This document shows positions 34,107 through 64,000 of a DNA stretch of 64,000 nucleotides, one piece after another. The stretch covers positions 2,232,001 through 2,296,000 of the forward strand of contig NZ_CP072203.1 of the NCBI RefSeq assembly GCF_017654315.1, given 5' to 3'. This DNA is from Gordonia polyisoprenivorans (lineage in GTDB: Bacteria > Actinomycetota > Actinomycetes > Mycobacteriales > Mycobacteriaceae). Position numbers and translations under genes: made by a program. The notes under the pieces are model-generated. The model was not told the origin of the DNA. It ran no database searches and saw only the letters and a list, made by a program, of their open reading frames with translations. Every line of letters starts with the position of its first letter. Within the stretch, counting starts at the first letter, position 1.

Positions 34107-34137
34107 GGACGACGGGTGCTCACGAACGACGCGGGGC

Positions 34138-35408: not shown

Positions 35409-35434
35409 GGACATTCCTCTGGTGTGTGTCGGTG

Positions 35435-37015: not shown

Positions 37016-37017
37016 GA

Positions 37018-39514: not shown

Positions 39515-39528
39515 GGGGACTCCGGAAC

Positions 39529-39548
39529 GTCAGTGTGTCGTGTCTGAC
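39529..39548. promoter_or_regulatory. Inverted repeat GTCAG-N10-CTGAC
   Basis: Five-bp arms around TGTGTCGTGT, overlapping the predicted transcription start of the ligase operon. The TCGTGTCTG core at 39538-39546 is identical to nine bases of the dyad at 59463-59482. Confidence 0.4.
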
Positions 39549-39550
39549 AA

Positions 39551-39566
39551 ACCCTACAGCATGTCC
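39551..39566 (-). promoter_or_regulatory. Shared element GGACATGCTGTAGGGT, ligase operon promoter
   Basis: Read on the minus strand. TAGGGT is the putative -10; the predicted start is near 39543, leaving a short leader with GGAG before ATG 39514. Member of the GRACA-N3-TGTANNGT set. Confidence 0.6.
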
Positions 39567-39587
39567 GGAAATTATGGAAATAAAAAC

Positions 39588-39603
39588 GAACGCTGTGTAC
39601 GAT
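39588..39603 (+). promoter_or_regulatory. Shared element GAACGCTGTGTACGAT, crotonase promoter
   Basis: TACGAT is the putative -10 for the divergent crotonase gene at 39681. Differs from the consensus in GAACG for GAACA. Lies 21 bp from the oppositely oriented element at 39551-39566, so the two divergent promoters could be controlled together. Confidence 0.5.
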
Positions 39604-39680
39604 TTGTGTGTCGCTTGAACCGACCCGCGATCGACGCCGTGTTGATCACGTAATCCACTGGGAAATAAGGACTATCACTG

Positions 39681-40472
39681 ATGTCGAGATATGAGTACCT
39701 GTTGACCTCGATCGAGGACGGCGTCGGCATCATGACGCTGAACCATCCCGAGAAGCGCAACGCGTTGGGATGGGAACTACATCACGAGATCATCGCGGCG
39801 CTCGAGGAATGGGCCTACGACGACGAGGTGGCGGCGGTTCTGATCATCGGTACCGAGGAGTACTTCTGCGCGGGCTGGGCGCTCGATGTCCTGCAGGACA
39901 CGAAGGACTCCGATCGCACCAGGTTCACGGATCTGGCGTTGCGTTTGATGGTGGCGATCTATGACTATCGAAAGCCCACGATCGCCGCCGCCGCCGGGGT
40001 CTGCCCGGGCTACGGCATGGATGTTGCCAACATGTGCGACATCACCATCGCTTCGGCAAATGCCTCATTTGGTTCCACCCAGGTCAAGTACGCGATGAAC
40101 GGCTTTTACCACGGCATGCTGGGCAAGATGAACACGCAGCGGGCCCGTCGTATGTTGTTCACCGGCGACCCGATCTCGGCGGAGGAGGCGGTGCGGGTCG
40201 GACTCGTCGACGAGGTGGTCGAGGTGGGCACGCTCCGGGAAAGCGCTCTCGCGCTGGCGAAACAGATCGCCGAGAACGGTGCGGAACTGACCTCGGTGTT
40301 GAAAGAGGTCGCCTTGCGAGCACAGAACATGGATCACGTCGGTGCGACCGCCTACGAATTGCGGGTCACCCATGATCTGGTGCAGCGCGGCCTGTTCGCC
40401 AAGCGGATCGCGACCGGGCTCGAGCGGCTGAAGTCGGGTCGGAGCAGGGCGACCGAGCGGACCGCGCTGTGA
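39681..40472 (+). CDS. Enoyl-CoA hydratase/isomerase family protein
   Basis: 263-residue crotonase-fold protein. N-terminal TLNHPEKRNALGWELHHEI, oxyanion-hole segments EEYFCAGWALDVLQ and AGVCPGYGMDVANMCDI. Unusual: the first catalytic Glu position reads FGSTQVKYAMNGFYHGML, so both classical hydratase Glu residues appear absent, and the Gly-Gly pair of the second oxyanion segment is GYG. May act as another type of crotonase (hydrolase, isomerase, C-C lyase). Single gene, divergent from the ligase operon and ended by a strong hairpin. Confidence 0.87.
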   Translation: MSRYEYLLTSIEDGVGIMTLNHPEKRNALGWELHHEIIAALEEWAYDDEVAAVLIIGTEEYFCAGWALDVLQDTKDSDRTRFTDLALRLMVAIYDYRKPTIAAAAGVCPGYGMDVANMCDITIASANASFGSTQVKYAMNGFYHGMLGKMNTQRARRMLFTGDPISAEEAVRVGLVDEVVEVGTLRESALALAKQIAENGAELTSVLKEVALRAQNMDHVGATAYELRVTHDLVQRGLFAKRIATGLERLKSGRSRATERTAL

Positions 40473-40496
40473 TCCCCGTATGAGACGACGATCCCC

Positions 40497-40539
40497 GACA
40501 CTGCTGCGCCCCGGTGAGTACCCGGGGCGCAGCAGTGTC
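40497..40539. terminator. Strong bidirectional hairpin terminator
   Basis: Perfect 18-bp arms, GACACTGCTGCGCCCCGG and CCGGGGCGCAGCAGTGTC, with a 7-nt loop. Lies between the convergent crotonase (+) and acyl-CoA dehydrogenase (-) genes and can serve both. No T-run. Confidence 0.9.
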
Positions 40540-40555
40540 AGGGGGAGCGGTTGTC

Positions 40556-41728
40556 TCACAGGCCGATCGAGCGACCGATGATCTCCTTCATGATCTCGGT
40601 GGTGCCGCCGTAGATCGTCTGGATGCGGGCATCGACAAACGCACGACTGACCGGATACTCCTTCATGTATCCGTACCCGCCGTGCAGTTGTAGGCACCGA
40701 TCGGCGACGCGCATCTGCAGTTCGGTGGTCCACCACTTGGCCTTTGCCGCCTGCACCGGCGAAAGCTCCTTGCGGACATGCAGTTGTACACAGTGATCGA
40801 CGAACACCCGGGCGATGTCGACCTCGGTCTCGAGTTCGGCGAGGAGGAAACGGCTGTTCTGGAAGGACCCGATCGATTGGCCGAAGGCCTTGCGATCCTT
40901 GACATAGTCGATGGTCCGGGTGAGTGTCCCCTCGGCCGCGGCAACCGCGGTCACCGCCAGCGACAGCCGCTCCTGGGGAAGGTTGCGCATGAGTTGGTAG
41001 AAGCCCTCGCCCTCGTCGCCGAGCCGATTGGTGATCGGGACCCGGACGTCGGTGAAGGCCAGTTCGCTGGTGTCCTGCCCGTGCAGGCCGAGCTTGTCGA
41101 GGTTGCGGCCTTTCTCGAAGCCGGGTGTGCCATCTTCCACCACAACCAATGTCAGGCCTTTGTGTGTGTCATCGGAAGTACGCGCGGCGACAACGACGAG
41201 ATCGCAGTTCTGCCCGTTCGAGATGAATGTCTTGGAGCCGTTGATCACATAATGGTCTCCGTCGCGCACCGCTCGGGTCCGGATGCCCGACAGGTCGCTG
41301 CCCGTGCCCGGTTCGGTCATCGCGATGGCGCCGATGAGTGATCCGTCGGTGAGACCGGGAAGCCACCGTTGCTTCTGCTCGTCAGTGGTCAGATCGAGCA
41401 GGTACGGTCCCACGACGTCGTTCTGCAAGGCCAGGCCGAGCCCCGCCGAGCCGAAGCCGGACCTGGCGAACTCCTCGTCGACGACCGCATTGAAGCGGAA
41501 ATCGTCGATACCGGCCCCGCCGAACCGTTCGGGGGTGGGGAACAACAGCAGACCGGCCGCACCGGCCTCCTCGAAGAACCGGCGATCGACGCGCTTGTCG
41601 GCCTCCCACCGGTCGAAATCCGGCTCCACGACTCGACCGATGAATGCCGAAACCGTGTTTCGGAAGTCATCGTGGTCGGCGTCGAAGATTCGGTGGTCTG
41701 ACGAGTGTGGGCGGGTGTGGGTGGTCAT
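40556..41728 (-). CDS. Acyl-CoA dehydrogenase
   Basis: 390-residue flavoprotein oxidising acyl-CoA to enoyl-CoA. FAD/substrate segments IGAIAMTEPGTGSDLSG and YVINGSKTFISNGQNCDLVVV, C-terminal LQLHGGYGYMKEYPVSRAF and IYGGTTEIMKEIIGRSIGL. The MCAD-type Glu before GTT is Gly, and a Glu is present in LPQERLSLAV, the position of the base in long-chain and isovaleryl enzymes. ATG 41728 is chosen; the frame reaches further upstream through operator DNA. Divergent from a TetR regulator, with two operator-like dyads between. Confidence 0.92.
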   Translation of the reverse strand: MTTHTRPHSSDHRIFDADHDDFRNTVSAFIGRVVEPDFDRWEADKRVDRRFFEEAGAAGLLLFPTPERFGGAGIDDFRFNAVVDEEFARSGFGSAGLGLALQNDVVGPYLLDLTTDEQKQRWLPGLTDGSLIGAIAMTEPGTGSDLSGIRTRAVRDGDHYVINGSKTFISNGQNCDLVVVAARTSDDTHKGLTLVVVEDGTPGFEKGRNLDKLGLHGQDTSELAFTDVRVPITNRLGDEGEGFYQLMRNLPQERLSLAVTAVAAAEGTLTRTIDYVKDRKAFGQSIGSFQNSRFLLAELETEVDIARVFVDHCVQLHVRKELSPVQAAKAKWWTTELQMRVADRCLQLHGGYGYMKEYPVSRAFVDARIQTIYGGTTEIMKEIIGRSIGL

Positions 41729-41752
41729 GAGTTGCCTTCTGCTCCCAAAAAT

Positions 41753-41767
41753 CGAACAACATGTTCG
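41753..41767. promoter_or_regulatory. Operator dyad 1: CGAACA-ACA-TGTTCG
   Basis: Perfect 6-bp arms with 3-bp spacer, between the divergent acyl-CoA dehydrogenase and TetR genes. Its centre lies 29 bp from the second dyad. Confidence 0.7.
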
Positions 41768-41779
41768 CCTGATACCGAA

Positions 41780-41796
41780 ACCGTACACCATGTTCG
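41780..41796 (-). promoter_or_regulatory. Operator dyad 2 / shared element GAACATGGTGTACGGT
   Basis: On the minus strand GAACA, TGG, TGTACGGT, where TACGGT is the putative -10 of the acyl-CoA dehydrogenase gene. On the plus strand it is the near-palindrome CGTACA-CCA-TGTTCG, one mismatch from dyad 1. Confidence 0.65.
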
Positions 41797-41854
41797 AATT
41801 GACCCGGCTCCCTCTGGCTCACAACGTCGCCCGATCAGCGGCTAGGGTTGACCA

Positions 41855-42487
41855 ATGGCAGCACGAACACGCGAGCCGGCGCGCACCCCGGGACGCGAAC
41901 GTCAGCGGGAGACCACGATCCGCCGTGCCACCGAAGCGGCCGAGACGCTACTTGCCGACGGTGTGCCGTTCGCCGAGATCAGTGTCGAACAAGTCATCTC
42001 ACGAGCCGGGATTGCGCGCTCGACGTTCTACACACACTTCGACGATCTCGGCCACCTGCTGCGCGAACTCGGCGACGGTGTGGTCACCGAGCTGATCGTC
42101 GCCGCACGCAAATGGATGGATCTCGACGCCGACATCACCCACGATAAGCTGCGCGACGCGCTAGACGGCGTGGTCAAGGTCTACCGACACCGGCAAAAGC
42201 TCCTGGGGGCTCTGGCCGAGGCCTCCACCTCCGATCCGGCGGTGCGTGACGAGTTCCACCGGCTCCTGTCCGCCGGTCACGTCGAGCTGGCCAAACACAT
42301 CACCAGGGGGCAGGACGCGGGTACCGTTCGCCGCGACATCGATGCGGAGCCGACCGCCGGGTGGATCGTGTGGATGGTCGAACGAGGTCTGTATCAACAG
42401 ATTCGGGTCGCGAAACCACGAATGGTCACACGTCATGTCGACGCGCTGACCGAGATCATCTGGCGGGCGTTGTACGAGATCGGATGA
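41855..42487 (+). CDS. TetR-family regulator
   Basis: 210 residues: N-terminal HTH with RRATEAAETLLADGVPFAEISVEQVISRAGIARSTFYTHFDD (residues 24-65) and an all-helical ligand domain. Divergent from an acyl-CoA dehydrogenase, with two GAACA…TGTTC dyads between, so it probably represses both. TAGGGT (41843-41848) is 6 nt before the ATG, suggesting a leaderless mRNA. A prime candidate for the regulator of the shared promoter element found across 39-60 kb; its ligand would be an acyl-CoA or pathway intermediate (inference). Confidence 0.9.
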   Translation: MAARTREPARTPGRERQRETTIRRATEAAETLLADGVPFAEISVEQVISRAGIARSTFYTHFDDLGHLLRELGDGVVTELIVAARKWMDLDADITHDKLRDALDGVVKVYRHRQKLLGALAEASTSDPAVRDEFHRLLSAGHVELAKHITRGQDAGTVRRDIDAEPTAGWIVWMVERGLYQQIRVAKPRMVTRHVDALTEIIWRALYEIG

Positions 42488-42562
42488 TGTCGGATGTCTG
42501 TGTGCACCGGGACGGACCAACGCCGGATGGTTGCGATCCCCCTACCCCACGTGCGCCAGAGG

Positions 42563-44401
42563 TCACGGCCGTGCCGACTGCTCGTAGATTCTCTCGATCA
42601 GTCCCTCGTACTTGCTTGCGACACCGCGTCGCTTGAGCTTCATCGTCGGGGTGAGTTCCTCGGAGTCGGGCAACCACTCGGCGTCGAGGAGACGGTAGGC
42701 CTTGATCTGTTCGACACGCGAGAGTCGCGCGTTCGCCTGCTCCACGGCCTCGGCGATGAGCTGCTTGAGCTCCGGATCGTCGACCAGGTCCGACAATGCG
42801 GCATCGGCACGGCCACGTTGGGTGGCGAAGGTCCGCGCCGAATCGGGGTCGAGCACCAGAAGCGCCACGTTGTAGGGGCGGCGGTCACCGATGACACAGG
42901 CCTGCCCGATCAGCGGGGACGCACTCTTCAGGGTCCCCTCGATGTTGGCCGGCGACATGTTCTTTCCCGCCGCGTTGATGATGAGTTCCTTCTTGCGGTC
43001 GACGATGCTCACCCATCCGTCGTCATCGATGACGGCGATGTCGCCGGTGTGCAGCCAGCCGTGCGCGTCGATGGCCTCGGCGGTCTTCTCGGGAGTCTTG
43101 CGGTAGCCCTTCATGACATGGGGTCCGCGGAGCAACAGTTCGCCGTCGTCGGCGAGTTTCGCCTCGGTTCCCGGCTGCGCGATACCGACTTTCCCGATCC
43201 GGATGTCGGTGGGCAGGTTGGTGAAGCCCAGAGCGCCGGTCTCCGACATGCCGAAGCCCTCTTGGAGCGGAAGACCGAGTGCGAGAAAGAATTCGTGCAC
43301 CGCGGGCGCAATCGGCGCCGCACCGGTCATGAGGAGCGCGACGCGATCGAAACCCAGCTGGGTCCGCAACGGTGCGAGGATCTCGGCATCGGCCTCGGCA
43401 ACCCGGTCGGCGAGATCACCCGGCACCTCCTCGTGTCGCTGCTCGATCCGAACCTTCTCGATGGCGGCGTCCACCGCGGCGAGGGTGGTCGCCCGTGAAC
43501 CATCCGGCAGGGCATCGAATTTCGCGAGGAGCGAGGCGCGCAGCTTCTCCCAGATCCGGGGGACGCCGAGAAACCACGACGGATGGGTCTCGGCGACCGC
43601 GGCGAACACCGACGACGCGTTCGCGACTGTCGTGATCGGCCATCCGGTAGCCGTTGCCAGGTAGTGCGAGAACACCCGGTCTGCTGCGTGTGCGGTCGGC
43701 AGGTAGGAGATCGCTGCACCCTCGACGGCGAAGGGGAAACGCAGATTACAGGTGTGCATGACGAACATGAGATTGGCGTGCGTGAGCTCCACGCCCTTGG
43801 GGTCGCCGGTCGTCCCCGAGGTGTAGATGAGCGTGGCGACATCGTCGGACCGGACTGCGCCCCACGTTGATTCGAAATCGAATCCGTCCGGCCGGCGGCT
43901 CCGGAGCTCGTCAAGGGTGCTCACCCGGGCCGCGCCCACCGCATCGTTGCCGTCGACGGAATCGACGACGACCACATGCGCCAGTCGCGGAGCCGCCGCC
44001 GCTCCGATCGCCGAGAGGAAGCGGGATTCGGTCACCAGCACCGTGTTCTCGGCGTTGCCGAACAGATAACTGATCTGCTCGGGCGCCGAGGTCAGGTAGA
44101 TCGAGAACGGCGTCGCACCCAGATGCAGGGTCGCCATGTCGATGATGTGGAACTCCGGACAGTTGGGCAGCATGATCGCCACGGTGTCGCCCCGCCCGAC
44201 GCCGAGATCGGCCAACCCGGCGGCCACCTCTGCCACGATCCTCGCGTAGTCGTTCCACGACAACGACTTCTCGGTGCCGAAGTCATACAGTGCGAGCCGG
44301 TCGCCGCGGTCGGCGACGGTGGCCTGGAATGCCGCCGGGATCGTGGCGGCGGCAACTCCGGGTGCGGCCTGTGGAGTACGGGTGTCGGTGCTCTGGGACA
44401 T
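42563..44401 (-). CDS. Long-chain acyl-CoA synthetase (FadD15-like)
   Basis: 612-residue AMP-forming ligase of the long-chain type. P-loop LIYTSGTTGDPKG near 195, VFSHYLATATGWPITTV, A5 EGFGMSETGALGFTN, A7 WLHTGDIAVIDDDGWV, hinge DRKKELIINAAGKNMSPANIE, and C-terminal ELTPTMKLKRRGV with the Lys typical of this FACS subgroup. ATG 44401 follows GAGG. Located 92 bp downstream of the Baeyer-Villiger monooxygenase gene on the same strand, so probably cotranscribed; it could activate acids released after ester cleavage. Confidence 0.92.
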   Translation of the reverse strand: MSQSTDTRTPQAAPGVAAATIPAAFQATVADRGDRLALYDFGTEKSLSWNDYARIVAEVAAGLADLGVGRGDTVAIMLPNCPEFHIIDMATLHLGATPFSIYLTSAPEQISYLFGNAENTVLVTESRFLSAIGAAAAPRLAHVVVVDSVDGNDAVGAARVSTLDELRSRRPDGFDFESTWGAVRSDDVATLIYTSGTTGDPKGVELTHANLMFVMHTCNLRFPFAVEGAAISYLPTAHAADRVFSHYLATATGWPITTVANASSVFAAVAETHPSWFLGVPRIWEKLRASLLAKFDALPDGSRATTLAAVDAAIEKVRIEQRHEEVPGDLADRVAEADAEILAPLRTQLGFDRVALLMTGAAPIAPAVHEFFLALGLPLQEGFGMSETGALGFTNLPTDIRIGKVGIAQPGTEAKLADDGELLLRGPHVMKGYRKTPEKTAEAIDAHGWLHTGDIAVIDDDGWVSIVDRKKELIINAAGKNMSPANIEGTLKSASPLIGQACVIGDRRPYNVALLVLDPDSARTFATQRGRADAALSDLVDDPELKQLIAEAVEQANARLSRVEQIKAYRLLDAEWLPDSEELTPTMKLKRRGVASKYEGLIERIYEQSARP

Positions 44402-44493
44402 GGGGACGTGACCTCGCTGCTCGTGGTGGCGATGGATCTTCGGTGGGATCGAGATGTGGGGGTGGGGTGGGGCATGCCCTACCGGGACATTCC

Positions 44494-46524
44494 CTATTGG
44501 GGCGAGGTGACCGTTGTCGATTCGGTGGCATGCTCTGCCGCCGATCCGTTGCGGGGGGTGACGATGAAATCCGATGGCTCCGGTTCGTGGACGCGATCCC
44601 AGTAGTCGACGTAGCGCCACGGGCTGTTCGTCACGATCCGCCCGCGGGCATTGCGGTAATAGGTGGTGGTACCGCCGAAGTCCCACACCGTGTGCGCGAG
44701 TGCGTCGTCGAGCTCCTCGTTGTAGGAGTCGTGGGATTCCTGGCGCACCTCGATGGTGGCGAGGTCGTCATCGATCATCGAGCTGATCAACGCGGTGACG
44801 TGTTGTACCTGCATCTCGGTGCCCGCGATCACTGTGCCGCCGTGCCCGGTGTTGGTGTTCGGGCCGTACAGGCAGAAGAAGTTGGGGAACCCGGGAACCG
44901 AGATGCCCAGAAAGGCGCGGCCGTCGCCCTCGCCCCACACCTCTCGGAGTGTGTGCCCGCCTCGGCCTCGCACGGTGAGTGACGCGAGGACGTCGACCGC
45001 CTTGAAACCTGTTGCCAGCACCAGGATGTCGGCCTCGTGATCGGTGCCGTCGACCGTTCGGACGCCGGTCTCGGTGATCTTCTCGATGCCGTCGGTGACG
45101 AGTACGACGTCGTCGCGGGTCAGTGATCGGAACCAGCCGGCATCGATCAGCAGGCGTTTTCCGTACGGCGGATAGTCGGGCACGCTGCGGGCCAGCACGT
45201 CCGGGTGCTCGGCGAGCTCGTGCTCGATGTAGGCGGTGAGTTGCGCGCGAAGCCGGTCGTTTCCCTTGTTGATGGCCCGACCGAGATGCGGGAACTCGGG
45301 ATCCACCTGCAGTAGACCCCACACCTTGTCACCCATGCGCCAGAACAGCCGGGCGCGATACCAGGCCAGGTAGTAGGGCACGTGCTCATTGAGGAAGTGC
45401 ACGGCGGCCGACACATCGGCACCCTTGAGAGGATGTGGAATCGCCCACTGCGCGGTCCGTTGGAAGACGCGGACCTCCTGCGCCACCTCCGCGCTTGCGG
45501 GCACGAATTGCATGGCGCTTGCGCCGGTTCCGATGACGGCGACCCGTTTGCCCGCGAGATCGATCGAGCGATCCCAACGGGCGGTGTGCAGGGTCGGACC
45601 GCCGAAATCGGAGAGTCCGGGTAGATCGGGGATGCTCGGCTGGTTGAGGAGCCCGACGGCGCTGATGACGACGTCGGCGACGAGTGTCTCCGTCGCCTCA
45701 TCGACGTCGGCCGGTCCGATGCTGACCTCCCACTTCGAGGTGGCCTCGTCGAACTGCGCCTCGTGGACGAGCGTGCTCAGCCGAGTGTTGGCCAGGACGC
45801 CGTGACGCTGCGCCAGGGTGCGCCAGTAGTCGGCGAGCTCGCTTTGCGGTGCGAAGTAACTCGACCAGTCCGGCTTGGGATCGAACGACAGGGCATAGAG
45901 GTAGCTCGGGGTGTCGACCCCGCACCCCGGATAGAAGTTCTCGTGCCACGTGCCGCCGACGTCGGGGTTCTTGTCGACGACGGTGTAGGCGATACCGGCC
46001 TGCGCCAGACGCACTGCCATCGCCAACCCCGAGATGCCGGCGCCGATGATCAGGACCCGGAAGCCCGACCGAGGCGTCGACTGCGGTTCGCTGTGACGGG
46101 CATAGATTCCCATCTCCTCACCGAGCAGACGACCGTAATCCGCGGGGATCGAATCGTGCAGCATCACCGACAGGGCGGCCGAAAGTCGCTCGGGTTCCGG
46201 CAGATCGGCCGGCGGTTGCAACGTTCCGTCCCGCCAGGCGATGAGCACCTCGGCCGCTTCCGTGCGTATCCGCGCTGCGCACTCGTCGTCGAACCCGCCC
46301 GAATCGTGATCGCCGAGGTCCCTCGGGGCGGTGGGGAGATACGGCTCCGAGATCCAGCGGTCGTCGTCGGTGAGCAGGGCGAGCGAGCCGAGCAGGATCG
46401 GCAGATTCGCCTCGGCGAGGGCATCGGTCAGTTCCGCGTCGGTGAAATCGGGCGTCGGGGTGAACGCGCCCGACGGCTGATGTCCGGAGCGGAGTTTCTT
46501 CGATTGGGGTCTGGACTGCACCAT
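44494..46524 (-). CDS. Baeyer-Villiger monooxygenase (HAPMO-like, long N-terminus)
   Basis: 676-residue flavoprotein inserting oxygen next to a ketone to make an ester or lactone. After an N-terminal extension of ~155 residues (LTDALAEANLPILLGSLALL, as in 4-hydroxyacetophenone monooxygenase) come FAD motif IGAGISGLAMAVRLAQAG, type I fingerprint FGGPTLHTARWD (FxGxxxHxxxWD) near 306, NADPH motif VIGTGASAMQF near 323, and a second segment ILVLATGFKAVDVL. ATG 46524 lies exactly 7 nt after TATGGT and the upstream ATG overlaps the promoter element, so the mRNA is probably leaderless. Divergent from an alpha/beta hydrolase gene that could open the ester product. Confidence 0.9.
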   Translation of the reverse strand: MVQSRPQSKKLRSGHQPSGAFTPTPDFTDAELTDALAEANLPILLGSLALLTDDDRWISEPYLPTAPRDLGDHDSGGFDDECAARIRTEAAEVLIAWRDGTLQPPADLPEPERLSAALSVMLHDSIPADYGRLLGEEMGIYARHSEPQSTPRSGFRVLIIGAGISGLAMAVRLAQAGIAYTVVDKNPDVGGTWHENFYPGCGVDTPSYLYALSFDPKPDWSSYFAPQSELADYWRTLAQRHGVLANTRLSTLVHEAQFDEATSKWEVSIGPADVDEATETLVADVVISAVGLLNQPSIPDLPGLSDFGGPTLHTARWDRSIDLAGKRVAVIGTGASAMQFVPASAEVAQEVRVFQRTAQWAIPHPLKGADVSAAVHFLNEHVPYYLAWYRARLFWRMGDKVWGLLQVDPEFPHLGRAINKGNDRLRAQLTAYIEHELAEHPDVLARSVPDYPPYGKRLLIDAGWFRSLTRDDVVLVTDGIEKITETGVRTVDGTDHEADILVLATGFKAVDVLASLTVRGRGGHTLREVWGEGDGRAFLGISVPGFPNFFCLYGPNTNTGHGGTVIAGTEMQVQHVTALISSMIDDDLATIEVRQESHDSYNEELDDALAHTVWDFGGTTTYYRNARGRIVTNSPWRYVDYWDRVHEPEPSDFIVTPRNGSAAEHATESTTVTSPQ

Positions 46525-46531
46525 ACGTGCG

Positions 46532-46547
46532 ACCATACAATCTGTTC
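46532..46547 (-). promoter_or_regulatory. Shared element GAACAGATTGTATGGT, monooxygenase promoter
   Basis: Minus strand. TATGGT is the -10, followed by 7 nt and ATG 46524. The wider context (CGTCTGAACA, then ATTGTATG) matches the aldehyde dehydrogenase promoter at 59598-59620 in 21 of 23 positions. Confidence 0.7.
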
Positions 46548-46615
46548 AGACGTGGTGTCAATCACAGTCCACTCCGAATGTGGAGGACGGATGCCGCCGG
46601 TGAAGAGGAGAACCC

Positions 46616-50520: not shown

Positions 50521-50521
50521 A
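50506..50521 (+). promoter_or_regulatory. Shared element GAACAGACTGTATAGA, promoter of acyl-CoA dehydrogenase pair
   Basis: Overlaps the stop codon of the fusion gene. The -10 is less exact than the others (TATAGA, or TAGGAT a few bases later). ATG 50526 would lie at or before the transcription start, so ATG 50541 is preferred. Confidence 0.55.
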
Positions 50522-50540
50522 TAGGATGTATGTTTCACTC

Positions 50541-52846: not shown

Positions 52847-52862
52847 ACCCGCAGACACGAGT

Positions 52863-52896
52863 CCGTGGGCCCGACCGAGAACGGTCGGGCCCACGG
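52863..52896. terminator. Strong hairpin terminator
   Basis: Perfect 15-bp arms, CCGTGGGCCCGACCG and CGGTCGGGCCCACGG, with loop AGAA. Lies between the acyl-CoA dehydrogenase pair (+) and the racemase pseudogene (-); no T-run. Confidence 0.9.
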
Positions 52897-52913
52897 CCTA
52901 CGTGTGGGTACGG

Positions 52914-54065
52914 TCAGTTCGCAGAAGCCACGACGCCCGACTGGCACAGCCGGCCGATCTCGGAATCGCTGAAACCGACTTCGGCCAGGACATCGTCGGA
53001 ATCCGCCCCGGGAGAACGGCAACTGCGCGGCTGCGTCGGCGCAACACCGTCGAAGCGTGGTGCGGGGGCGGGTTGCACGACGCCGTCGTTCGCGACGAAT
53101 GTCCCACGCTCGACGTGATGTGGATGAACCGCCGTCTCGGACAACGCGAGAACCGGTGTTTAACAGGTGTTTCGGCCCGCGAACAGGCGGTCCAACTCGT
53201 CCCGGCTGTGCTCGGCGATCGATCGGTGAGTACCTTGCGATACTCGTCGAAGCGCTCGGGATCACGATGACCGGTGCGCATCGACTCGGGAAGGTCGAGG
53301 ACGTCGCACAGTTCGATCCAGAACTGGTCCTCGATGGCCCCGATACTGACCCACTTCCCGTCGCGTGTCGGGTACACGTCGGAGAAGAACGAGCCGGTGT
53401 CGAGCAGGTTGGTTCCACGCTCTTCGGTGTAGTCGCCCTCGGCGCGATAGGAATGGAACATCGACATCAGCGCGGAGGCGCCGTCGATCATGGCGGCGTC
53501 GACGACGCGCCCTCCGCCGCCGGCCCGGGCGGACACGATACCGGCAAGCATGCCGAGCGCGAGAAACGTTCCGCCACCACCGAAATCGCCCACGAGATTC
53601 AACGGGGCGACCGGCGCCTGGCCGGCCTGCCGATGGCGTGTAGCGCGCCGGTCAGGGCGATGTAGTTGATGTCGTGACCCGGCGCCGACGCCAGCGGCCC
53701 GGTCTGCCCCCAACCGGTCATCCGCCCGTACACCAGATCGCTGTTGACGGCGAGGCAGTCCTGTGGACCCACCCCGAGGCGCTCGGCGGCGCCGGGACGA
53801 AACGTCTCGAACAGTCCGTCCGCCCCGACGCACAACCGGCGAACCACCTCGGCGCCCTCGGTCTCTTCAGATCGACGGCGACGTGGCGTCGACTGCGAAA
53901 CAGGATGTCGTGGCCCGCCACCGCCCACGGATTACCGCCGGGACGGTCGACGGTGATGACCTCGGCACCCATGTCGGCGAGCAACATCCCCGCGAACGGG
54001 CCCGGACCGATACACGCGAGCTCGATCACCCGCACACCGTCGAGCGGTGCCGCAGCAGCGGTCAC
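52914..54065 (-). pseudogene. Decayed alpha-methylacyl-CoA racemase (class III CoA-transferase family)
   Basis: Remains of a gene of about 380 codons. The start is intact and typical: LDGVRVIELACIGPGPFAGMLLADMGAEVI. The frame then breaks near 53860 (expected DLKRPEGAEV), near 53626-53632 (expected [24 protein letters not shown]) and near 53218-53224, and a TAA stop interrupts the last frame at 53160-53162 (NTC, stop, TPVLALSETAVHPHHVERGTF). Each frameshift fits a single-base deletion. The enzyme would epimerise 2-methyl-branched acyl-CoAs, needed for isoprenoid or steroid side chains. Four lesions argue for true decay rather than one sequencing error. Follows the MpaB-type gene with an ATGA overlap. 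Confidence 0.85.
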
Positions 54066-55387
54066 GCGTGCGACACGGTCGGCATACCGCCCTTGTTGGC
54101 GACGATGTCGGCGTGCACCTCGTCGGGGTTGGCCACGGCCATCTCCTTGTTGGAGCCGTCGGGGAGTTCGATCGCGTCGTTGAACTGACGCAGCATCGTG
54201 AACGCGGCGCGCTCGTCGTCATGCGGAAGGAGTCGACCGACGCGGCTGGCCAGGGCGACCGCGGGACGGATGGTCGGCAGGATGTGGCGCCACGGCGTCT
54301 TCTCCGCTTCGAGACCTTCCATGACGTCGGCCGGAATCCACGAATGCAGAAGTCCGTAAGCGAGTTTCAGGCGGCGCTCGTTGGTCATGAACTTGGCGAC
54401 CGGGCCGGGCAACACCTCGACGTCCCCGGGCGGGTTCTCCACGCTGTACTCGACGATCGAGTGCACGACGTCGCGGCAGAGCTCGTCCGGCGGCAGTTCG
54501 ATCAGGGTGTGCAACTCGGTCTTGCGTCGCGCGTCCTCGTAGCCGGTGTGCAAGATCTCCTCGGGGACACCGATGACGTATCCCACGTAGCGGCTCAGTG
54601 CGAAGATGTCCTCGAGTTCACGGTCGCTGTAGCGGATTCCGGAGCTCTGAACCGCATCGATGAACTTGACACCGAACTGTCCGGCCTGGGTGACCATGCC
54701 GTCGAGGTTGTTGATCGGGATGCCCCAGTTGGCCCAGTCCCACGCGTCGGAACTGCCGAGGCTGTGGCGGACCGCAGCATGGATCATCCGAACCTTGGCG
54801 GTCAGCCGAAAGCCGTCTTCGTAGCGATGCATGCCCCCGGGCGTGTAGGCGGCCACCACATATCGGAAACTCTCGATGAGACGGGTACCGACCTGATCCA
54901 TCTTCCGCAGACGTCCGCTGAACAGAACCGGCCGGGTGGCGCTGTACATGGAGAACCCACCGGCGATCGCGCCCCACGCCAGCACGGGCGGCACGATGGG
55001 GCCGGCACGCCAGAAGGCCACCGCCCCGCGATAGAGCTGGTCGAAATCGACCCACTCCGGTACCCGATCGAGCTGCTCGAAGATGGCCACCAGGCCCGGA
55101 GTGGGGTCGTCGATGGAATCGATGCCGTGCTCGAGGGCACGGTCGAAGGTGCGCCAGCTGGTGGTGTTGCTCTTGTCCTTGAAGTCGAGCATCGCCTGGT
55201 AGGCGTAGTCGTCGGCGAGGAGCGCGTGATCGGTCAATGTCTCGACCATCTCGCGTCCGTACATTGCGATCGCCTTGTCCTTGTTGGCGATTCGCCCCAG
55301 GTCGATACCCTTCGGCAGACCCGGCGGTACATCGAGGTCTCCTCGAAAGGTCATCTCCCGAGTGGTCTTCGGCTCAGTGGTGGTCAT
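54062..55387 (-). CDS. MpaB/DUF2236-family oxygenase (latex-clearing-protein-like)
   Basis: 441-residue protein of the heme-dependent MpaB/Lcp oxygenase superfamily. The conserved core GFRLTAKVRMIHAAVRHSL (near residue 195-213) carries the Arg, Lys and His positions associated with heme binding in Lcp; NNLDGMVTQAGQFGVKFIDAVQ and the nearby YVGYVIGVPEEIL also fit. No Tat or Sec signal is visible, so unlike rubber-cleaving Lcp it is probably intracellular. Substrate unknown; an oxygen-dependent attack on an isoprenoid or sterol-like compound is conceivable. GTG/ATG choices near 55387 agree with the family. Divergent from a nitroreductase operon. Confidence 0.8.
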   Translation of the reverse strand: MTTTEPKTTREMTFRGDLDVPPGLPKGIDLGRIANKDKAIAMYGREMVETLTDHALLADDYAYQAMLDFKDKSNTTSWRTFDRALEHGIDSIDDPTPGLVAIFEQLDRVPEWVDFDQLYRGAVAFWRAGPIVPPVLAWGAIAGGFSMYSATRPVLFSGRLRKMDQVGTRLIESFRYVVAAYTPGGMHRYEDGFRLTAKVRMIHAAVRHSLGSSDAWDWANWGIPINNLDGMVTQAGQFGVKFIDAVQSSGIRYSDRELEDIFALSRYVGYVIGVPEEILHTGYEDARRKTELHTLIELPPDELCRDVVHSIVEYSVENPPGDVEVLPGPVAKFMTNERRLKLAYGLLHSWIPADVMEGLEAEKTPWRHILPTIRPAVALASRVGRLLPHDDERAAFTMLRQFNDAIELPDGSNKEMAVANPDEVHADIVANKGGMPTVSHA

Positions 55388-55461
55388 GTCGCCTCCTGTG
55401 GATCGCGGTGTGTTGGGCGGTTCCCCTGTGATGGCCGTTACAACTCAGGGTAGACCGTGGT

Positions 55462-55474
55462 GAACACTATGTCT
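55462..55474. promoter_or_regulatory. Variant of shared operator: GAACA-CTA-TGTCT
   Basis: Lies in the 195-bp divergent region between the MpaB-type gene and the nitroreductase gene. Half-sites GAACA and TGTCT with the same 3-bp spacer as the other sites, but no clean -10 overlap on either strand. A TACA-N5-TGTA dyad follows at 55474-55486. Confidence 0.4.
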
Positions 55475-55582
55475 ACACTCACTGTATGGCCGCATGTATG
55501 AAGAGTGTGGCCGCCCGCACCGTTTCCCGCGTGCGGTGGGGAGATCTCGGACGACGAGGTCCGACAGAAGAAAGGTGCCGTC

Positions 55583-56344
55583 ATGACCGCCGACCCCGTG
55601 GGCGTCGCCGCCGCGTCCGACATATCCGCCGATGAGGTGGCCACCGACGCGCTCGGCAGGTTGTTGTCGACCCGGTGGAGCTGTCGCGCCTTTCTGCCGC
55701 AACCGATTCCGCGCGAAGAGCTCGACCGGGTCCTCGACATCGCCCGCCGCACACCGTCGTGGTGCAATACCCAGCCCTGGCACATCGACATCACCACCGG
55801 GTCGGCCACCGACGCTCTGCGCGATGCGTTGCACGACGCCATCTCGCAAGGCTCGCAGGAGAATCCGGACATCGAGTTCCCGACCGCGTATGAGGGGGTC
55901 TACCGGGATCGGCGGCGGACCAGTGGATGGCAGCTCTATGAGAGCCTGGGAATCGCCAAGGGTGATCGCGCAGCATCGGCACGACAAACCCTGCGCAACT
56001 TCGACTTCTTCGACGCACCCCATGTCGCGGTCGTGACGACCGAGCGGGCGCTGGGAACGTACGGGGCCGTCGACTGTGGTCTCTTCGTCAACAATTTCCT
56101 GCTCGCGGCGCACAGTCGCGGCATCGGCACGATTCCGCAGGCGGCGCTGGCGACCCAGGCGCCGGTGCTGCGCGACTACTTCGGTTACCCGGATAATCGT
56201 CTGGTGCTACTGGGTATCTCGTTGGGATACCCCGACCTCGACGATCCGGTGAACGTCTATCGCACCGAACGGCAGGAGGTCGGCGACATCGCGACATTCC
56301 ACGACGGTCCCGGTGCGGTCGGCCCGACGGGGGCGCGGTCATGA
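55583..56344 (+). CDS. Nitroreductase-family FMN oxidoreductase
   Basis: 253-residue FMN protein. STRWSCRAFLPQPIPREELDRVLDIARRTPSWCNTQPWH is the typical nitroreductase N-terminus with FMN-contacting Arg, Ser and Asn; C-terminal GIGTIPQAALATQAP and LVLLGISLGYPD complete the fold. Could reduce enones, nitro compounds or supply an oxygenase. ATG 55583 follows GAAAGG. Its stop overlaps the start of the next alpha/beta hydrolase (ATGA), and a double-TetR regulator follows, forming a three-gene unit. Confidence 0.9.
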   Translation: MTADPVGVAAASDISADEVATDALGRLLSTRWSCRAFLPQPIPREELDRVLDIARRTPSWCNTQPWHIDITTGSATDALRDALHDAISQGSQENPDIEFPTAYEGVYRDRRRTSGWQLYESLGIAKGDRAASARQTLRNFDFFDAPHVAVVTTERALGTYGAVDCGLFVNNFLLAAHSRGIGTIPQAALATQAPVLRDYFGYPDNRLVLLGISLGYPDLDDPVNVYRTERQEVGDIATFHDGPGAVGPTGARS

Positions 56345-57207
56345 GCGGGCGGCTCGTGGAAACCCGCGACGGCACGCGGATCAACGTCCGCGAGGTGGGG
56401 CAGGGGCCGACGGTCCTGTTCATCCACGGGTGGAGTCTCAGCGGAGAGGTGTGGGATCGACAACTCGGCGCTGTGGCCGCCGCCGGCTATCGGGCGCTGG
56501 CAATGGACCAACGCGGACACGGCGATTCCGATGCGCCACAGCAGGGATATGAGATCGAGGGCCTCGTCGCCGATGCCGTCGACGTGCTCGGCGCACTCGG
56601 TGTCGACCATGCGGTCGTGGTCGGTTGGTCGCTGGGCGGGATGGTCGGGCTGCGTCTGGCCCACGACCACCCCGACCTCGTCGACGCGCTGGTGATGGTG
56701 GCATCCAATGGGGTGTCGGCCTCGCGTACCGACGCCTTCGCCTTCGGCGTGCCCGCCGACAAGCCACTCGCCGCGATCCTCGGCGCCGAGCATGCCGATC
56801 GAATTGCGTTGCGGCGCAGCGCGGTGGGCGACCCGTTCAAGGGCGACCCCGATCCGCAGACGCTCGACTGGCTCCATCGCGTGTCGCTGCAGACGCCGAC
56901 CTGGGCCGCGCAGGCGGCGATGCGGACGCTGATGTGCACCGATCAGACCCATGTCCTCGACGAGCTCTCGGTACCGGTGACCCAGATCGTCGGCGCCGCG
57001 GATCCGGCGTTGTCCATGCGCGGCGCGCGATGGGTGCGTGATCGCCTCGCCTCGACGCTGGTGGAACTCGATTGTGGGCACTATCCGATGCTCGAATGCC
57101 CCGACGAGTTCGACGCCGCGCTTCTCGGCGGAATCGGTAAGCGTCGGGAAGTGCCCAAGGCGGAAGAATACGGCGCAGAAGCGTCAATACTACGTGTCCG
57201 GACATAA
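56341..57207 (+). CDS. Alpha/beta-fold hydrolase
   Basis: 288-residue serine hydrolase. Oxyanion segment LFIHGWSLSGEVWDRQ near 27-42, MDQRGHGDSDAP, nucleophile elbow VVVGWSLGGMVGL (Ser near 97), acidic residue in IVGAADPALS, and His in DCGHYPMLECP. Resembles non-heme peroxidase/esterase-type hydrolases; substrate unknown. Translationally coupled to the nitroreductase. The promoter element of the following regulator lies just before and across this gene's stop codon. Confidence 0.88.
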   Translation: MSGRLVETRDGTRINVREVGQGPTVLFIHGWSLSGEVWDRQLGAVAAAGYRALAMDQRGHGDSDAPQQGYEIEGLVADAVDVLGALGVDHAVVVGWSLGGMVGLRLAHDHPDLVDALVMVASNGVSASRTDAFAFGVPADKPLAAILGAEHADRIALRRSAVGDPFKGDPDPQTLDWLHRVSLQTPTWAAQAAMRTLMCTDQTHVLDELSVPVTQIVGAADPALSMRGARWVRDRLASTLVELDCGHYPMLECPDEFDAALLGGIGKRREVPKAEEYGAEASILRVRT

Positions 57208-57215
57208 TGTAAAGT
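57200..57215 (+). promoter_or_regulatory. Shared element GGACATAATGTAAAGT, double-TetR promoter
   Basis: TAAAGT is the -10, followed by exactly 7 nt and ATG 57223. Overlaps the end of the hydrolase gene. Indicates that the double-TetR regulator may be autoregulated through the same element as the catabolic genes. Confidence 0.65.
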
Positions 57216-57222
57216 CATGGTC

Positions 57223-58515
57223 ATGACCCAGGGCTCTTTCGTGCGGCGCCGACCTCGCGAGTTCGACGGCACCTCGTCCGCCGAACTGGCCGTGTTCGCC
57301 GCGACGGAAGAGCTGCTGCGCGACACGTCGCTCCAGAAACTCACTGTGGCGCAGATCTTGCGTGCCGCCGGACTGTCCCGGGCGAATTTCTACCACTATT
57401 TCGCCAACAAGTATGACGTCCTCGTGGCATTGCTCGGGCGGGTCTTCGACGATTCGTACGGCCAGGACGCGCCGTGGTCCACGACTCCCGGTAAGGCCCG
57501 CGCGCAACGGATGGGCACCAGCCTGGAGAGCACGCTCGAGATGTGGTCGGCGCACGGCGCGGTCATCTGCTCGGTGATCGAGCACATGCACAGCGAGCCG
57601 GCGGTGGCCGCGGCGTGGCAGCGCATGTACGGGCGTTTTGTCGACGCGATCACCGAACAGGTTGTCTACGAGCGGAATTCGGGTCAGGCCCCGGCGGGCT
57701 CGCCGCCGGACATGATCGCCACCATGCTCGTCGGTGCGGCCGAGCGCGTGTTCTACGTCAGCTCGCGGGGGCTCGATCCGCGGCTGGCCACGGTCGACGA
57801 CGTCGTGGAACCGTTGCGTGCGGTCAACGAGGCGGCGATCTTCGGTGGACGTCATGACGCGGAATCGGACAAGAGTTCTTCTGCAGCAACCGATCTCGAA
57901 CGATCACCGATGCCGGAGATCACCGCACCCGTCGTCGAGGGAGAAACCGCGACGGCGATTCTGCAGGCGATGCGCGAGCTGCTCGTCGAAGAAAGCCTGG
58001 CCGATGTCAGCGTGGCCAAGATCCTGGAGAAGTCCGGTATCTCGCGCGCATCGTTCTACTTCTACTTCCGCAGCAAGGAGGACGCCTTCGTGGTGTTGTT
58101 CCGCGAGGCGGCGGCCGACATCGTGGCGGGCCTACGCGGGCTGGCCGACATCGATCGCGACGAGCCGGAGAGGCTGTTGGCCCAGGTCGGTGAGTGGCTC
58201 GATCTGGAGGGTTTCGCCGGTCCGGTGATCCGCAACGCGGTCCACGCGTGGCCGCGACTGCCGGAACTGCGCGCGGAGTACCTCGCGGCGATGAACGCCA
58301 TGGAAACGACCCTGGAGTCGATCATCGACTCCGATCGTGCTGCCGGACTCGCGCCTGCGGGGCCGCCCGTGCCGGCGTATGCGGCGGTCATCTTGTGGAC
58401 GATCGAACGAGCCGTGGCCGGTGCCCTGGCCGGCGAGGAGCACCTCGCCGATCTGGATGCGGTCACCGAGATGGTCGGTCGATTCCTGTACGCAGCCGTC
58501 TACGGACGCCGCTGA
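57223..58515 (+). CDS. Tandem double-TetR transcriptional regulator
   Basis: 430 residues made of two complete TetR-type units. The first HTH (about 25-65) contains LTVAQILRAAGLSRANFYHYFANKYDVL; the second (about 245-290) contains VSVAKILEKSGISRASFYFYFRSKEDAF. Each is followed by an all-helical ligand-binding-like domain. The joining segment (residues ~205-235) is polar and probably flexible. A monomer could act as a pseudo-dimer on DNA. ATG 57223 is chosen over 57217 because it stands 7 nt after TAAAGT (leaderless). Located after the nitroreductase–hydrolase pair and near the shared promoter elements; second candidate for the regulon's controller. Confidence 0.9.
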   Translation: MTQGSFVRRRPREFDGTSSAELAVFAATEELLRDTSLQKLTVAQILRAAGLSRANFYHYFANKYDVLVALLGRVFDDSYGQDAPWSTTPGKARAQRMGTSLESTLEMWSAHGAVICSVIEHMHSEPAVAAAWQRMYGRFVDAITEQVVYERNSGQAPAGSPPDMIATMLVGAAERVFYVSSRGLDPRLATVDDVVEPLRAVNEAAIFGGRHDAESDKSSSAATDLERSPMPEITAPVVEGETATAILQAMRELLVEESLADVSVAKILEKSGISRASFYFYFRSKEDAFVVLFREAAADIVAGLRGLADIDRDEPERLLAQVGEWLDLEGFAGPVIRNAVHAWPRLPELRAEYLAAMNAMETTLESIIDSDRAAGLAPAGPPVPAYAAVILWTIERAVAGALAGEEHLADLDAVTEMVGRFLYAAVYGRR

Positions 58516-58519
58516 CACC

Positions 58520-58541
58520 ACCCGCCCCCACACGTGCGGGT
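58520..58541. terminator. Weak hairpin between convergent genes
   Basis: ACCCGC and GCGGGT arms with a 10-nt loop, in the 42-bp gap between the double-TetR and crotonase genes. Confidence 0.4.
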
Positions 58542-58557
58542 CTGCGCCGAATTCTGT

Positions 58558-59373
58558 TCAGCGACCGGTGAAGTGCGGTGTACGCCGATTCATGAAGGCA
58601 TCCACGCCGGTGCGGAAGTCCGTGGAGTCGACCAGCTCGGTCTGCCCGGCGATCTCGGTTTCGAAGGCCTCGTCGAGATGGGGGAGCAGCGCGGCGTTGA
58701 GGCTGCGTTTGGTGGCGGCGTAGGAGCGGGTGGGCCCGGCGGCGAAATGCTCGGCGACCTCATCGACCCGAGCGGCAAGCGCGTCGTCGGCGACCACGGC
58801 GTCGATCATCCCCCACGACAGCGCGGTGTCGGCGTCCACCGGCTCGGCCAACATGGCCATCCGGGTGGCACGGCCGAATCCGACACGCGCACCGAGCAAC
58901 GCCGAGGCGCCCGCGTCGAGGGTCAGACCCACCCGGGAGAAGGCCAGGACAAAGCTCGCCGACCGGACCGCCACCACGTGATCACAGGCAAGAGCGAGCG
59001 CACACCCCACCCCCGCGGCGGTGCCGTTGACCGCGGCGATCACCGGCTTGGGCATGGTGCGGATCGCACGGATCGTCGGGTTGTAGCGCATCCGCAGCTC
59101 CTCCTCGGTACGCGGAGCCAGCCGGGTCTGCGGACCGAGGTCGTCGAGCGTCAGATCGGCTCCCGAGGAGAAGGCGCGGCCCGCCCCGGTGAGGACCACG
59201 CAGCGCACGGAATCATCGGCCGTGAGCTCGTCGAGTGTGTTCCGGAGTTCGGACTGCAGCGAGGTGTCAAAGGCGTTGAGAGCCTGCGGTCGCGCAAGCG
59301 TCACGCGCGTCGCCGATCGTCTTCGATGGACCTCGATTACCTGCGAACTGCGGATCTTCTCCCAATCGGTCAC
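58558..59373 (-). CDS. Enoyl-CoA hydratase/isomerase family protein
   Basis: 271-residue crotonase-fold protein, closest in pattern to PaaG-like isomerases/hydratases. ARPQALNAFDTSLQSEL, oxyanion segments GRAFSSGADLTLDD and NGTAAGVGCALALACD, and FVLAFSRVGLTLDAGASALL where the catalytic acid of isomerases (Asp) could lie. GTG 59373 is preferred over upstream starts; TACTGT (59380-59385 on the minus strand) stands 6 nt before it, so the mRNA may be leaderless. Divergent from the aldehyde dehydrogenase gene across a 323-bp regulatory region. Confidence 0.88.
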   Translation of the reverse strand: MTDWEKIRSSQVIEVHRRRSATRVTLARPQALNAFDTSLQSELRNTLDELTADDSVRCVVLTGAGRAFSSGADLTLDDLGPQTRLAPRTEEELRMRYNPTIRAIRTMPKPVIAAVNGTAAGVGCALALACDHVVAVRSASFVLAFSRVGLTLDAGASALLGARVGFGRATRMAMLAEPVDADTALSWGMIDAVVADDALAARVDEVAEHFAAGPTRSYAATKRSLNAALLPHLDEAFETEIAGQTELVDSTDFRTGVDAFMNRRTPHFTGR

Positions 59374-59462
59374 CTGTGCACAGTAGCGAGGACTTGCTGT
59401 CCAGACAAGGTGTTCACAAGCGGCGGACCTGCAGCAGAGTGAAAACTTAGCTGATGACACTT

Positions 59463-59482
59463 GACACGAAACGTCTCGTGTC
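59463..59482. promoter_or_regulatory. Operator-like dyad GACACGA-N6-TCGTGTC
   Basis: Perfect 7-bp arms with spacer AACGTC. A longer-range inverted half-site follows at 59501-59510. A nine-base core (TCGTGTCTG) recurs at 39538-39546 upstream of the ligase operon. Confidence 0.6.
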
Positions 59483-59602
59483 TGTTAACGTCATGTCGTT
59501 CGTTTCGTGTTCCACATCACAATGCCACAGCCCCGCTCGTGGTGGGAGACGGCAGTGTCGGGTGCACGACAGCACCATTGCCAAGTGATTGACGTCACGT
59601 CT

Positions 59603-59618
59603 GAACACATTGTATGCT
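59603..59618 (+). promoter_or_regulatory. Shared element GAACACATTGTATGCT, aldehyde dehydrogenase promoter
   Basis: TATGCT is the -10; predicted start near 59626. Nearly identical, over 23 bp, to the monooxygenase promoter element at 46532-46547 and its flank. Confidence 0.7.
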
Positions 59619-59696
59619 CGCGCTGTCCAAACAAAGCACGACCCGGTGTGGCCGTCCGTTGAAGCCCACCGCTCGATCCGTCTGGGGTGAGATCAG

Positions 59697-61088: not shown

Positions 61089-61180
61089 CCCACATCACCC
61101 CGCCGTCGGCGGGTAGCCCGGTGCCCCGTGCGGTCATGTCCCGATCGCACGCGGTGAATCCTGAAGTGAAAGAGGTGGAG

Positions 61181-62041: not shown

Positions 62042-62045
62042 TCCG

Positions 62046-62912: not shown

Positions 62913-62913
62913 C

Positions 62914-63993: not shown

Positions 63994-64000
63994 TGTCACC
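63993..64000 (+). CDS. Start of next mce operon gene (truncated by window)
   Basis: ATG at 63993-63995 overlaps the TAA of the preceding mce gene and is preceded by AGGGAGGGA. Only the first codons are inside the window; by operon order it should encode the second Mce protein (MceB position). Confidence 0.5.

What the first reader, a model, noticed from the sequence alone, without database searches (positions are those of the whole stretch)
39551..59618. One 16-nt operator/promoter element shared by at least seven catabolic promoters
Aligned in transcription direction: GGACATGCTGTAGGGT (39566 to 39551), GAACGCTGTGTACGAT (39588), GAACATGGTGTACGGT (41795 to 41780), GAACAGATTGTATGGT (46547 to 46532), GAACAGACTGTATAGA (50506), GGACATAATGTAAAGT (57200), GAACACATTGTATGCT (59603). 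The consensus is GRACA-N3-TGTANNGT, and TANNNT serves as -10 in all but one. A variant site is at 55462 and a perfect dyad CGAACA-ACA-TGTTCG at 41753. The served genes are a ligase operon, a crotonase, three acyl-CoA dehydrogenases, a Baeyer-Villiger monooxygenase, an aldehyde dehydrogenase and a TetR regulator. This looks like an undescribed regulon in which a repressor covers the -10 box. It differs from the KstR and KstR2 sites I know.
Basis: partly seen in the sequence, partly recalled or inferred. Interest (0 to 1): 0.82.

Follow-up and report, generated by a model that had tools for sequence, protein, structure and literature searches.

The report
Two look-alike catabolic repressor operator codes
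A stretch of Gordonia DNA carries two similar but distinct families of short sites at the promoters of predicted lipid-breakdown genes, each likely the off-switch of a different TetR-type repressor, one of them a two-in-one (tandem) protein predicted to fold like the tuberculosis regulator Mce3R.

The parts
39551..39566 (-). Class A site, promoter of ligase 37892-39514; -10 TAGGGT
   Evidence: A 18.5 vs B 10.6; counterpart in paralogous copy and in G025
39588..39603 (+). Class A site, promoter of crotonase 39681-40472; -10 TACGAT
   Evidence: A 16.4 vs B 9.2; counterparts and in G719
41753..41767 (.). Class A perfect dyad CGAACA-ACA-TGTTCG between the acyl-CoA dehydrogenase and TetR 41855
   Evidence: A 20.4 vs B 3.3
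41780..41795 (-). Class A site; -10 TACGGT of acyl-CoA dehydrogenase (likely start 41728)
   Evidence: (only 0-mismatch hit of the A consensus in the genome)
41855..42487 (+). EthR-like TetR, likely regulator of class A
   Evidence: 73% paralog at 5.979 Mb, 73% in G025, 61-62% in G719
33234..42487 (.). Module A; homology to other copies starts at 33256 / 33361
46531..46550 (-). Class B operator TCTGAACAGATTGTATGGTC; -10 TATGGT; serves FMO/AMP-ligase unit (likely leaderless ATG 46524) and probably the divergent hydrolase 46616
46551..46565 (-). CRP/GlxR-like block GTGATTGACACCACG containing the -35 TTGACA
   Evidence: (0.95 identity among 15 loci against 0.28 in the flank)
50506..50521 (+). Class B-leaning site before the acyl-CoA dehydrogenase pair 50526-52846
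   Evidence: B 14.6 vs A 12.2
55462..55477 (+). Class B-like site GAACACTATGTCTACA shared by the overlapping divergent promoters of mpab 54062-55387 (-) and nitroreductase 55505-56344 (+)
   Evidence: conserved in 16 of 17 loci with mpab, the 17th with GGACA for GAACA; (B 14.1 vs A 8.3)
57195..57215 (+). Site TGTCCGGACATAATGTAAAGT in the tandem TetR's own promoter; -10 TAAAGT, likely leaderless ATG 57223
   Evidence: class undecided (A 15.4, B 15.7)
57223..58515 (+). Tandem TetR (two HTH domains), likely regulator of class B
59399..59418 (-).
   Evidence: 3 mismatches to the B consensus; 16 of 17 loci have a site at this place
59584..59599 (+). CRP/GlxR-like block AGTGATTGACGTCACG over the -35
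59600..59619 (+). Class B operator TCTGAACACATTGTATGCTC; -10 TATGCT; aldehyde dehydrogenase and yrbE-mce operon
42563..64000 (.). Module B: AMP ligase, FMO-type monooxygenase, hydrolases, hydrolase-AMP-binding fusion, two acyl-CoA dehydrogenases, MPAB/Lcp-like protein, nitroreductase, tandem TetR, crotonase, aldehyde dehydrogenase, yrbE-mce (runs past the window end)

Best explanation
The sites are two related but distinct operator families in two adjacent gene modules: those at 39551, 39588, 41753 and 41780 are likely bound by the EthR-like TetR at 41855, and those at 46532, 50506, 55462, 57200, 59399 and 59603 are likely bound by the tandem TetR at 57223, each predicted to repress by covering the stretch between the -35 and -10 boxes of a housekeeping-type promoter. 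Shown by calls: the sites, their class split, their conservation at orthologous promoters, the split of the modules, and the match between tandem TetR and class B sites across Gordonia. Inferred: which protein binds which site, repression, and release by a pathway intermediate. The tandem TetR is modelled as a single-chain pseudo-dimer like Mce3R, so it would present two unlike helix-turn-helix units; this fits an operator with unlike halves (TGTTCA and TGTATG). A CRP/GlxR-like palindrome over the -35 of the monooxygenase and aldehyde-dehydrogenase/mce promoters suggests a second, nutritional input (untested).
Against: No binding or expression data. Tandem TetR and class B sites travel together on one locus, so their co-occurrence does not by itself prove binding. 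The matrix trained on FMO and aldehyde-dehydrogenase sites scores low at the tandem TetR's own promoter (-8.1 to 8.2 in 21 loci) and at the nitroreductase promoter (-1.0 to 18.1 in 18 loci), so those rest on the core pattern and conservation alone. 57200 scores equally for both classes and 50506 leans to B by only 2.4. In some genomes (G030, G022, G021) I see no separate site before the first acyl-CoA dehydrogenase gene, only the divergent FMO site. TetR 41855 occurs in only 2 of 59 Gordonia genomes at E<=1e-45 (3 of 59 at E<=1e-25), too few for a co-occurrence test, and the short A pattern occurs in 54 of 59 genomes. The aldehyde-dehydrogenase site is absent in both Mycolicibacterium loci. 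The B matrix was trained on FMO and aldehyde-dehydrogenase sites of the other genomes, so only G000, G034 and the other promoters are independent of it. The shared GAACA-N3-TGTA core means cross-binding is possible.
Confidence: 0.73

Rival explanations
1. One regulon: a single TetR (41855 or 57223) controls all promoters, and the A/B differences are drift within one operator.
For: Common core GRACA-N3-TGTA; 57200 is intermediate; the modules are adjacent here.
Against: Of the 15 Gordonia genomes with the exact class B pattern, 13 lack TetR 41855 at E<=1e-25. Class A sites recur in G719 and at a second own-genome locus beside their own TetR copy. Matrices from other loci separate 8 of the 9 window sites, one of them weakly.
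Confidence: 0.12
2. The tandem TetR does bind class B, but the two regulators cross-regulate in this strain, so that module A is wired into the module B regulon.
For: 57200 (the tandem TetR's own promoter) and 39551 share TCCGGACAT-N2-TGTA.
Against: The second own copy of module A at 5.976 Mb has the same TCCGGACAT form, so it need not reflect wiring to the neighbour. Window A sites score 3.3-12.2 for class B where 46531 and 59600 score 30-31.
Confidence: 0.2
3. The conserved blocks are only sigma-type promoters with strong -35/-10 boxes, not operators.
For: TTGAC and TATGNT are part of the blocks.
Against: The first 8 operator bases lie in the spacer, which is not normally conserved in such promoters (general knowledge), yet are 0.92-0.96 identical when the flank is 0.28-0.29 (rows were picked by an operator regex, which inflates the operator figure). 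Palindromic forms CCATACA-N3-TGTATGG occur at further positions, such as a second site upstream of the aldehyde-dehydrogenase promoter.
Confidence: 0.06
4. Class B is read by another regulator encoded elsewhere, and the tandem TetR reads only its own promoter.
For: The TetR promoter form (TGTCYNNACA) differs from the FMO and aldehyde-dehydrogenase form and scores low for it. In Tsukamurella the tandem TetR stands without the cluster within 10 kb and has a promoter site only before itself; a second, 12-of-16 match lies inside a reading frame.
Against: 0 of 43 Gordonia genomes without the tandem TetR have the pattern; operator halves are TetR-like.
Confidence: 0.1

Closest known systems
Mce3R (Rv1963c) regulon of Mycobacterium tuberculosis (PMC11667970: abstract and passages seen; PMC5854369: passages seen)
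   Same: Tandem double-TetR protein, near and likely controlling an mce operon plus lipid-metabolism genes and itself; the predicted fold matches Mce3R over both halves. Mce3R is reported to be autoregulated and to bind an asymmetric operator (PMC11667970).
   Different: No Mce3R among the 46 PDB sequences matched at E<=0.01; about 15% identity in the structural alignment. Operator is a quasi-palindrome with N3 spacer inside the promoter, not two 25-bp non-palindromic sites 53 bp apart. The paper calls Mce3R orthologs exclusive to a subset of pathogenic mycobacteria; this one is in Gordonia and relatives.
EthR (Rv3855)
   Same: Nearest solved relative of TetR 41855 and of the N-terminal half of the tandem TetR; a flavin monooxygenase gene is among the likely targets, as ethA is for EthR (recalled).
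   Different: Tandem in 57223; compact N3 operator. PMC4482099 (passages) calls the EthR and Mce3R motifs larger, more complex and in multiple copies.
KstR and KstR2 steroid regulons
   Same: TetR control of mce, acyl-CoA dehydrogenase and ligase genes in mycolic-acid bacteria (recalled).
   Different: No match to the recalled KstR or KstR2 consensus anywhere in the window.
LcpR and the rubber-degradation (lcp) regulon
   Same: An MPAB/Lcp-family gene in the cluster in a close relative of G. polyisoprenivorans.
   Different: Lcp similarity is weak (E 2e-8, residues 97-311 only) and the protein shows no secretion signal by eye. LcpR operator not compared.

Membership tests
Mce3R-type tandem TetR | Two TetR HTH domains in one chain | tested here: met
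   TetR-model matches at 28-78 and 247-324 of the 432-aa ORF; 27 invariant columns among 50 homologs fall in both halves
Mce3R-type tandem TetR | Full-length fold as one pseudo-dimer | tested here: met
Mce3R-type tandem TetR | Sequence homology to Mce3R | tested here: not met
   Mce3R not among the 46 PDB sequences at E<=0.01; in the profile search it was not among the 60 shown of 116
Mce3R-type tandem TetR | Controls an mce operon and itself | tested here: inconclusive
   Sites at its own promoter and before aldehyde dehydrogenase/yrbE-mce, or yrbE itself in 3 genomes; no binding data
Mce3R-type tandem TetR | Two 25-bp non-palindromic operators 53 bp apart | tested here: not met
   Quasi-palindromic 20-mer at FMO and aldehyde dehydrogenase, some promoters with a second half-site about 13 bp away (spacing by eye)
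EthR-like TetR (41855) | EthR C-terminal domain | tested here: met
   PF21313 E 6e-9, 36.6 bits vs cutoff 27; EthR best PDB match
KstR/KstR2 regulon | Recalled KstR or KstR2 operator consensus | tested here: not met
   0 matches in the window
LexA (SOS box) | GAAC-N4-GTTC (recalled) | tested here: not met
   0 matches in the window; the dyad at 41753 has N5
TetR repressor operators | Direct binding and repression | not testable with these tools
   Needs gel shift, footprint and mutants

The most novel reading that the evidence does not exclude
A single-chain double-TetR repressor, EthR-like by sequence but built like Mce3R, reads an operator with two unlike halves that is fused to a CRP-type site within one promoter block. 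It governs an mce-linked catabolic regulon across Gordonia, Williamsia and Mycolicibacterium. Beside it sits an acquired module whose dimeric TetR reads a code differing mainly in one base per half-site (TGTTCG against TGTTCA): a natural pair for watching two repressor codes stay insulated, or merge.
Probability: 0.35. Interest if true: 0.7.

Novelty: new variant of a known kind. Interest (0 to 1): 0.58.

Why it matters
Mce3R is, by its authors' account, the first solved double-TetR repressor, and they call its orthologs exclusive to a subset of pathogenic mycobacteria. A second lineage with many conserved operators in tractable environmental bacteria would make testable how a one-chain repressor reads an asymmetric site and what ligand releases it. 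The operator set also defines the regulon of an unassigned mce-linked catabolic cluster, so its substrate can be sought by induction. The two neighbouring, nearly equal codes give a ready test of repressor specificity.

Tried and rejected
One-regulon reading: rejected as main explanation. LexA, KstR, KstR2: no consensus match (consensus letters recalled). Rubber-degradation reading of the cluster: the MPAB protein is only a weak relative of Lcp and the tandem TetR is in 16 of 59 Gordonia genomes; not pursued. Plasmid search with the aldehyde-dehydrogenase promoter: no match. The short A pattern CGAACAN3TGTWCG is not specific (54 of 59 genomes). TetR 41855 in 397 genomes of the order: 1 of 397 (the own genome), and in 401 of the family: 3 of 401; at most 7 candidates per genome were scored. 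A paper search for double or tandem TetR listed only unrelated papers among its first 12 of 898.
Full report
OBSERVATION. GRACANNNTGTANNNT has 5 exact matches in the window against 0.03 in shuffles and 9 in the 6.03 Mb genome, the reversed control giving 5. So the excess comes from this locus plus one other: 5 of 9 hits are here and 2 of 9 lie at 5.976-5.979 Mb. The latter is a second copy of the ligase / crotonase / acyl-CoA dehydrogenase / TetR group, with the same pairing of sites. The other 2 lie inside reading frames and look like chance.

TWO MODULES. It matches the window at 96.8% from 42570 to 64000. The fetched 40 kb of G034 show no ortholog of the left part, and its whole genome has no TetR 41855 at E<=1e-25; the other module A genes were not searched genome-wide there. 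The TetR 41855 gene ends at 42487, so the junction lies within about 80 bases. The left part (module A) has homologs at another place in the own genome and on another contig in G025 (G. asplenii). The tandem TetR of module B occurs in 16 of 59 Gordonia genomes at E<=1e-60. The cluster around it was read in the ten other genomes, in further genomes, in two Williamsia loci and, rearranged, in two Mycolicibacterium loci. It was not seen within 10 kb in Tsukamurella, and G019 lacks the acyl-CoA dehydrogenase pair in the fetched stretch.

CLASS B SITES. The exact pattern GAACANNNTGTATGNTC is found in 15 of 59 Gordonia genomes, 29 places in all, with 1 hit of the reversed control. All 15 are among the 16 with the tandem TetR, and none of the other 43 has it (Fisher p 4e-13, which ignores relatedness and linkage). 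The 16th, G066 (G. hydrophobica), has one-mismatch versions at both promoters. A matrix built from 32 FMO and aldehyde-dehydrogenase sites, without G000 and G034, scores above 28 upstream of FMO in 18 of 18 loci examined; G019 and G068 gave no usable upstream there. For aldehyde dehydrogenase it scores above 25 in 18 of 20, the two misses being Mycolicibacterium. Most of these are training sites. Independent of training are the own genome and G034, and the sites before yrbE in G026, G032 and G080 (scores 32.7-38.1; 3 of 19 yrbE upstreams; both Mycolicibacterium score 18.5). Of 101 control upstreams, 16 scored above 10, all of them the crotonase gene that shares the aldehyde-dehydrogenase intergenic region; 0 of the other 85 did.

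MOVING OPERATORS. In G026, G032 and G080 other genes separate yrbE-mce from aldehyde dehydrogenase, and a full copy of the promoter block stands before yrbE. In G021 the hydrolase and hydrolase-ligase pair lies at 0.82 Mb, the cluster at 4.51 Mb of a 5.15-Mb contig, and the pair has its own site.

OTHER PROMOTERS. Here the sites are of the same core but score low with the FMO/aldehyde-dehydrogenase matrix: -8.1 to 8.2 at the tandem TetR (21 loci), -1.0 to 18.1 at nitroreductase (18 loci). They are nonetheless conserved. GAACA-N3-TGTCT at mpab/nitroreductase is in 16 of 17 loci with mpab, and the 17th (G082) has GGACACTATGTCTA. The tandem TetR's promoter carries TGTCYNNACA in 11 of 11 Gordonia loci, 8 of them TGTCCGGACA (counted by eye). 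The first acyl-CoA dehydrogenase gene has its own site here and in several genomes, but in G030, G022 and G021 I see only the divergent FMO site. In the window every transcription unit of module B thus has an operator-like site in or next to its promoter.

SHARP FOOTPRINT. Among 15 loci at FMO and 17 at aldehyde dehydrogenase, the 60 bases upstream are 0.28-0.29 identical. The GTGATTGACRYCACG block is 0.95-0.97 identical and the operator 0.90-0.91. Rows were chosen by an operator regex and by the presence of TTGAC, which inflates those figures. The GTGA and YCAC letters outside TTGAC form a CRP/GlxR-like palindrome; that name is recalled and the function is untested.

CLASS A SITES. Four in the window, four at the second own copy, four in G025 and two in G719. 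The consensus CGAACANNNTGTACGRTTT with up to 3 mismatches gives 65 own-genome hits against 16 for the reversed control, so three mismatches are mostly noise. At up to 2 mismatches there are 7 hits, 6 of them in the two module A copies. Matrices built from other loci separate the classes. Window A sites score 16.4-25.4 (A) against 3.3-12.2 (B). 46531 and 59600 score 30-31 (B) against about 18 (A). 50506 and 55462 lean to B by 2.4 and 5.8. 57200 is undecided. Of the 15 genomes with the exact B pattern, 13 lack TetR 41855.

MECHANISM. Predicted: without inducer the repressors sit between -35 and -10 or over the -10 and block RNA polymerase. The FMO and tandem-TetR genes look leaderless (ATG 7 bases after TANNNT, seen in sequence). 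A pathway intermediate, perhaps an acyl-CoA, would release them. The gene set (ligases, paired acyl-CoA dehydrogenases, crotonase, monooxygenase, aldehyde dehydrogenase, mce transporter) suggests import and beta-oxidation of a bulky lipid; the substrate is unknown.

LITERATURE. Searches listed no paper that I recognised as describing this operator or regulon; only the top rows of each were shown, and the library lacks most subscription journals. Other papers in those lists were seen as listings only; PMC4482099 and PMC5854369 were seen as passages.

LIMITS. No binding or expression data; linkage of TetR and sites; sparse class A sampling; low matrix scores at three class B promoters; cross-regulation not excluded.

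Noticed in passing
own genome 5.958-5.995 Mb (L010, L097, L098): A second copy of module A (73-89% protein identity for ligase, crotonase, dehydrogenase and TetR) with the same four-site layout.
   Followed up: yes
window 46551-46565 (-), 59584-59599 (+) and 55427-55442: CRP/GlxR-like palindromes over the -35 of two class B promoters and beside the mpab/nitroreductase promoters (TGTGATGGCCGTTACA).
   Followed up: partly
L169 6519-7787 and L105 (G073, G030): A second, 44% identical tandem TetR near an extra mpab gene, with a site TCCGAACA-N3-TGTATGGTC nearby: a third flavour of the operator.
   Followed up: partly
window 55462-55485, 57190-57215, 59399-59418; mce promoters of G026, G032, G080: A further half-site about 13 bp from the first operator centre at several class B promoters (about 12 at FMO), as if operators came in overlapping pairs; measured by eye.
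   Followed up: partly
window 47203-50520: Alpha/beta hydrolase fused to an AMP-binding domain in one long reading frame.
   Followed up: no
window 54062-55387: MPAB/Lcp-family protein, weak sequence match to rubber oxygenase (E 2e-8).
   Followed up: partly
L117 (Tsukamurella sp. 8F): Tandem TetR (53%) without the catabolic cluster within 10 kb, yet with a site at its own promoter.
   Followed up: partly
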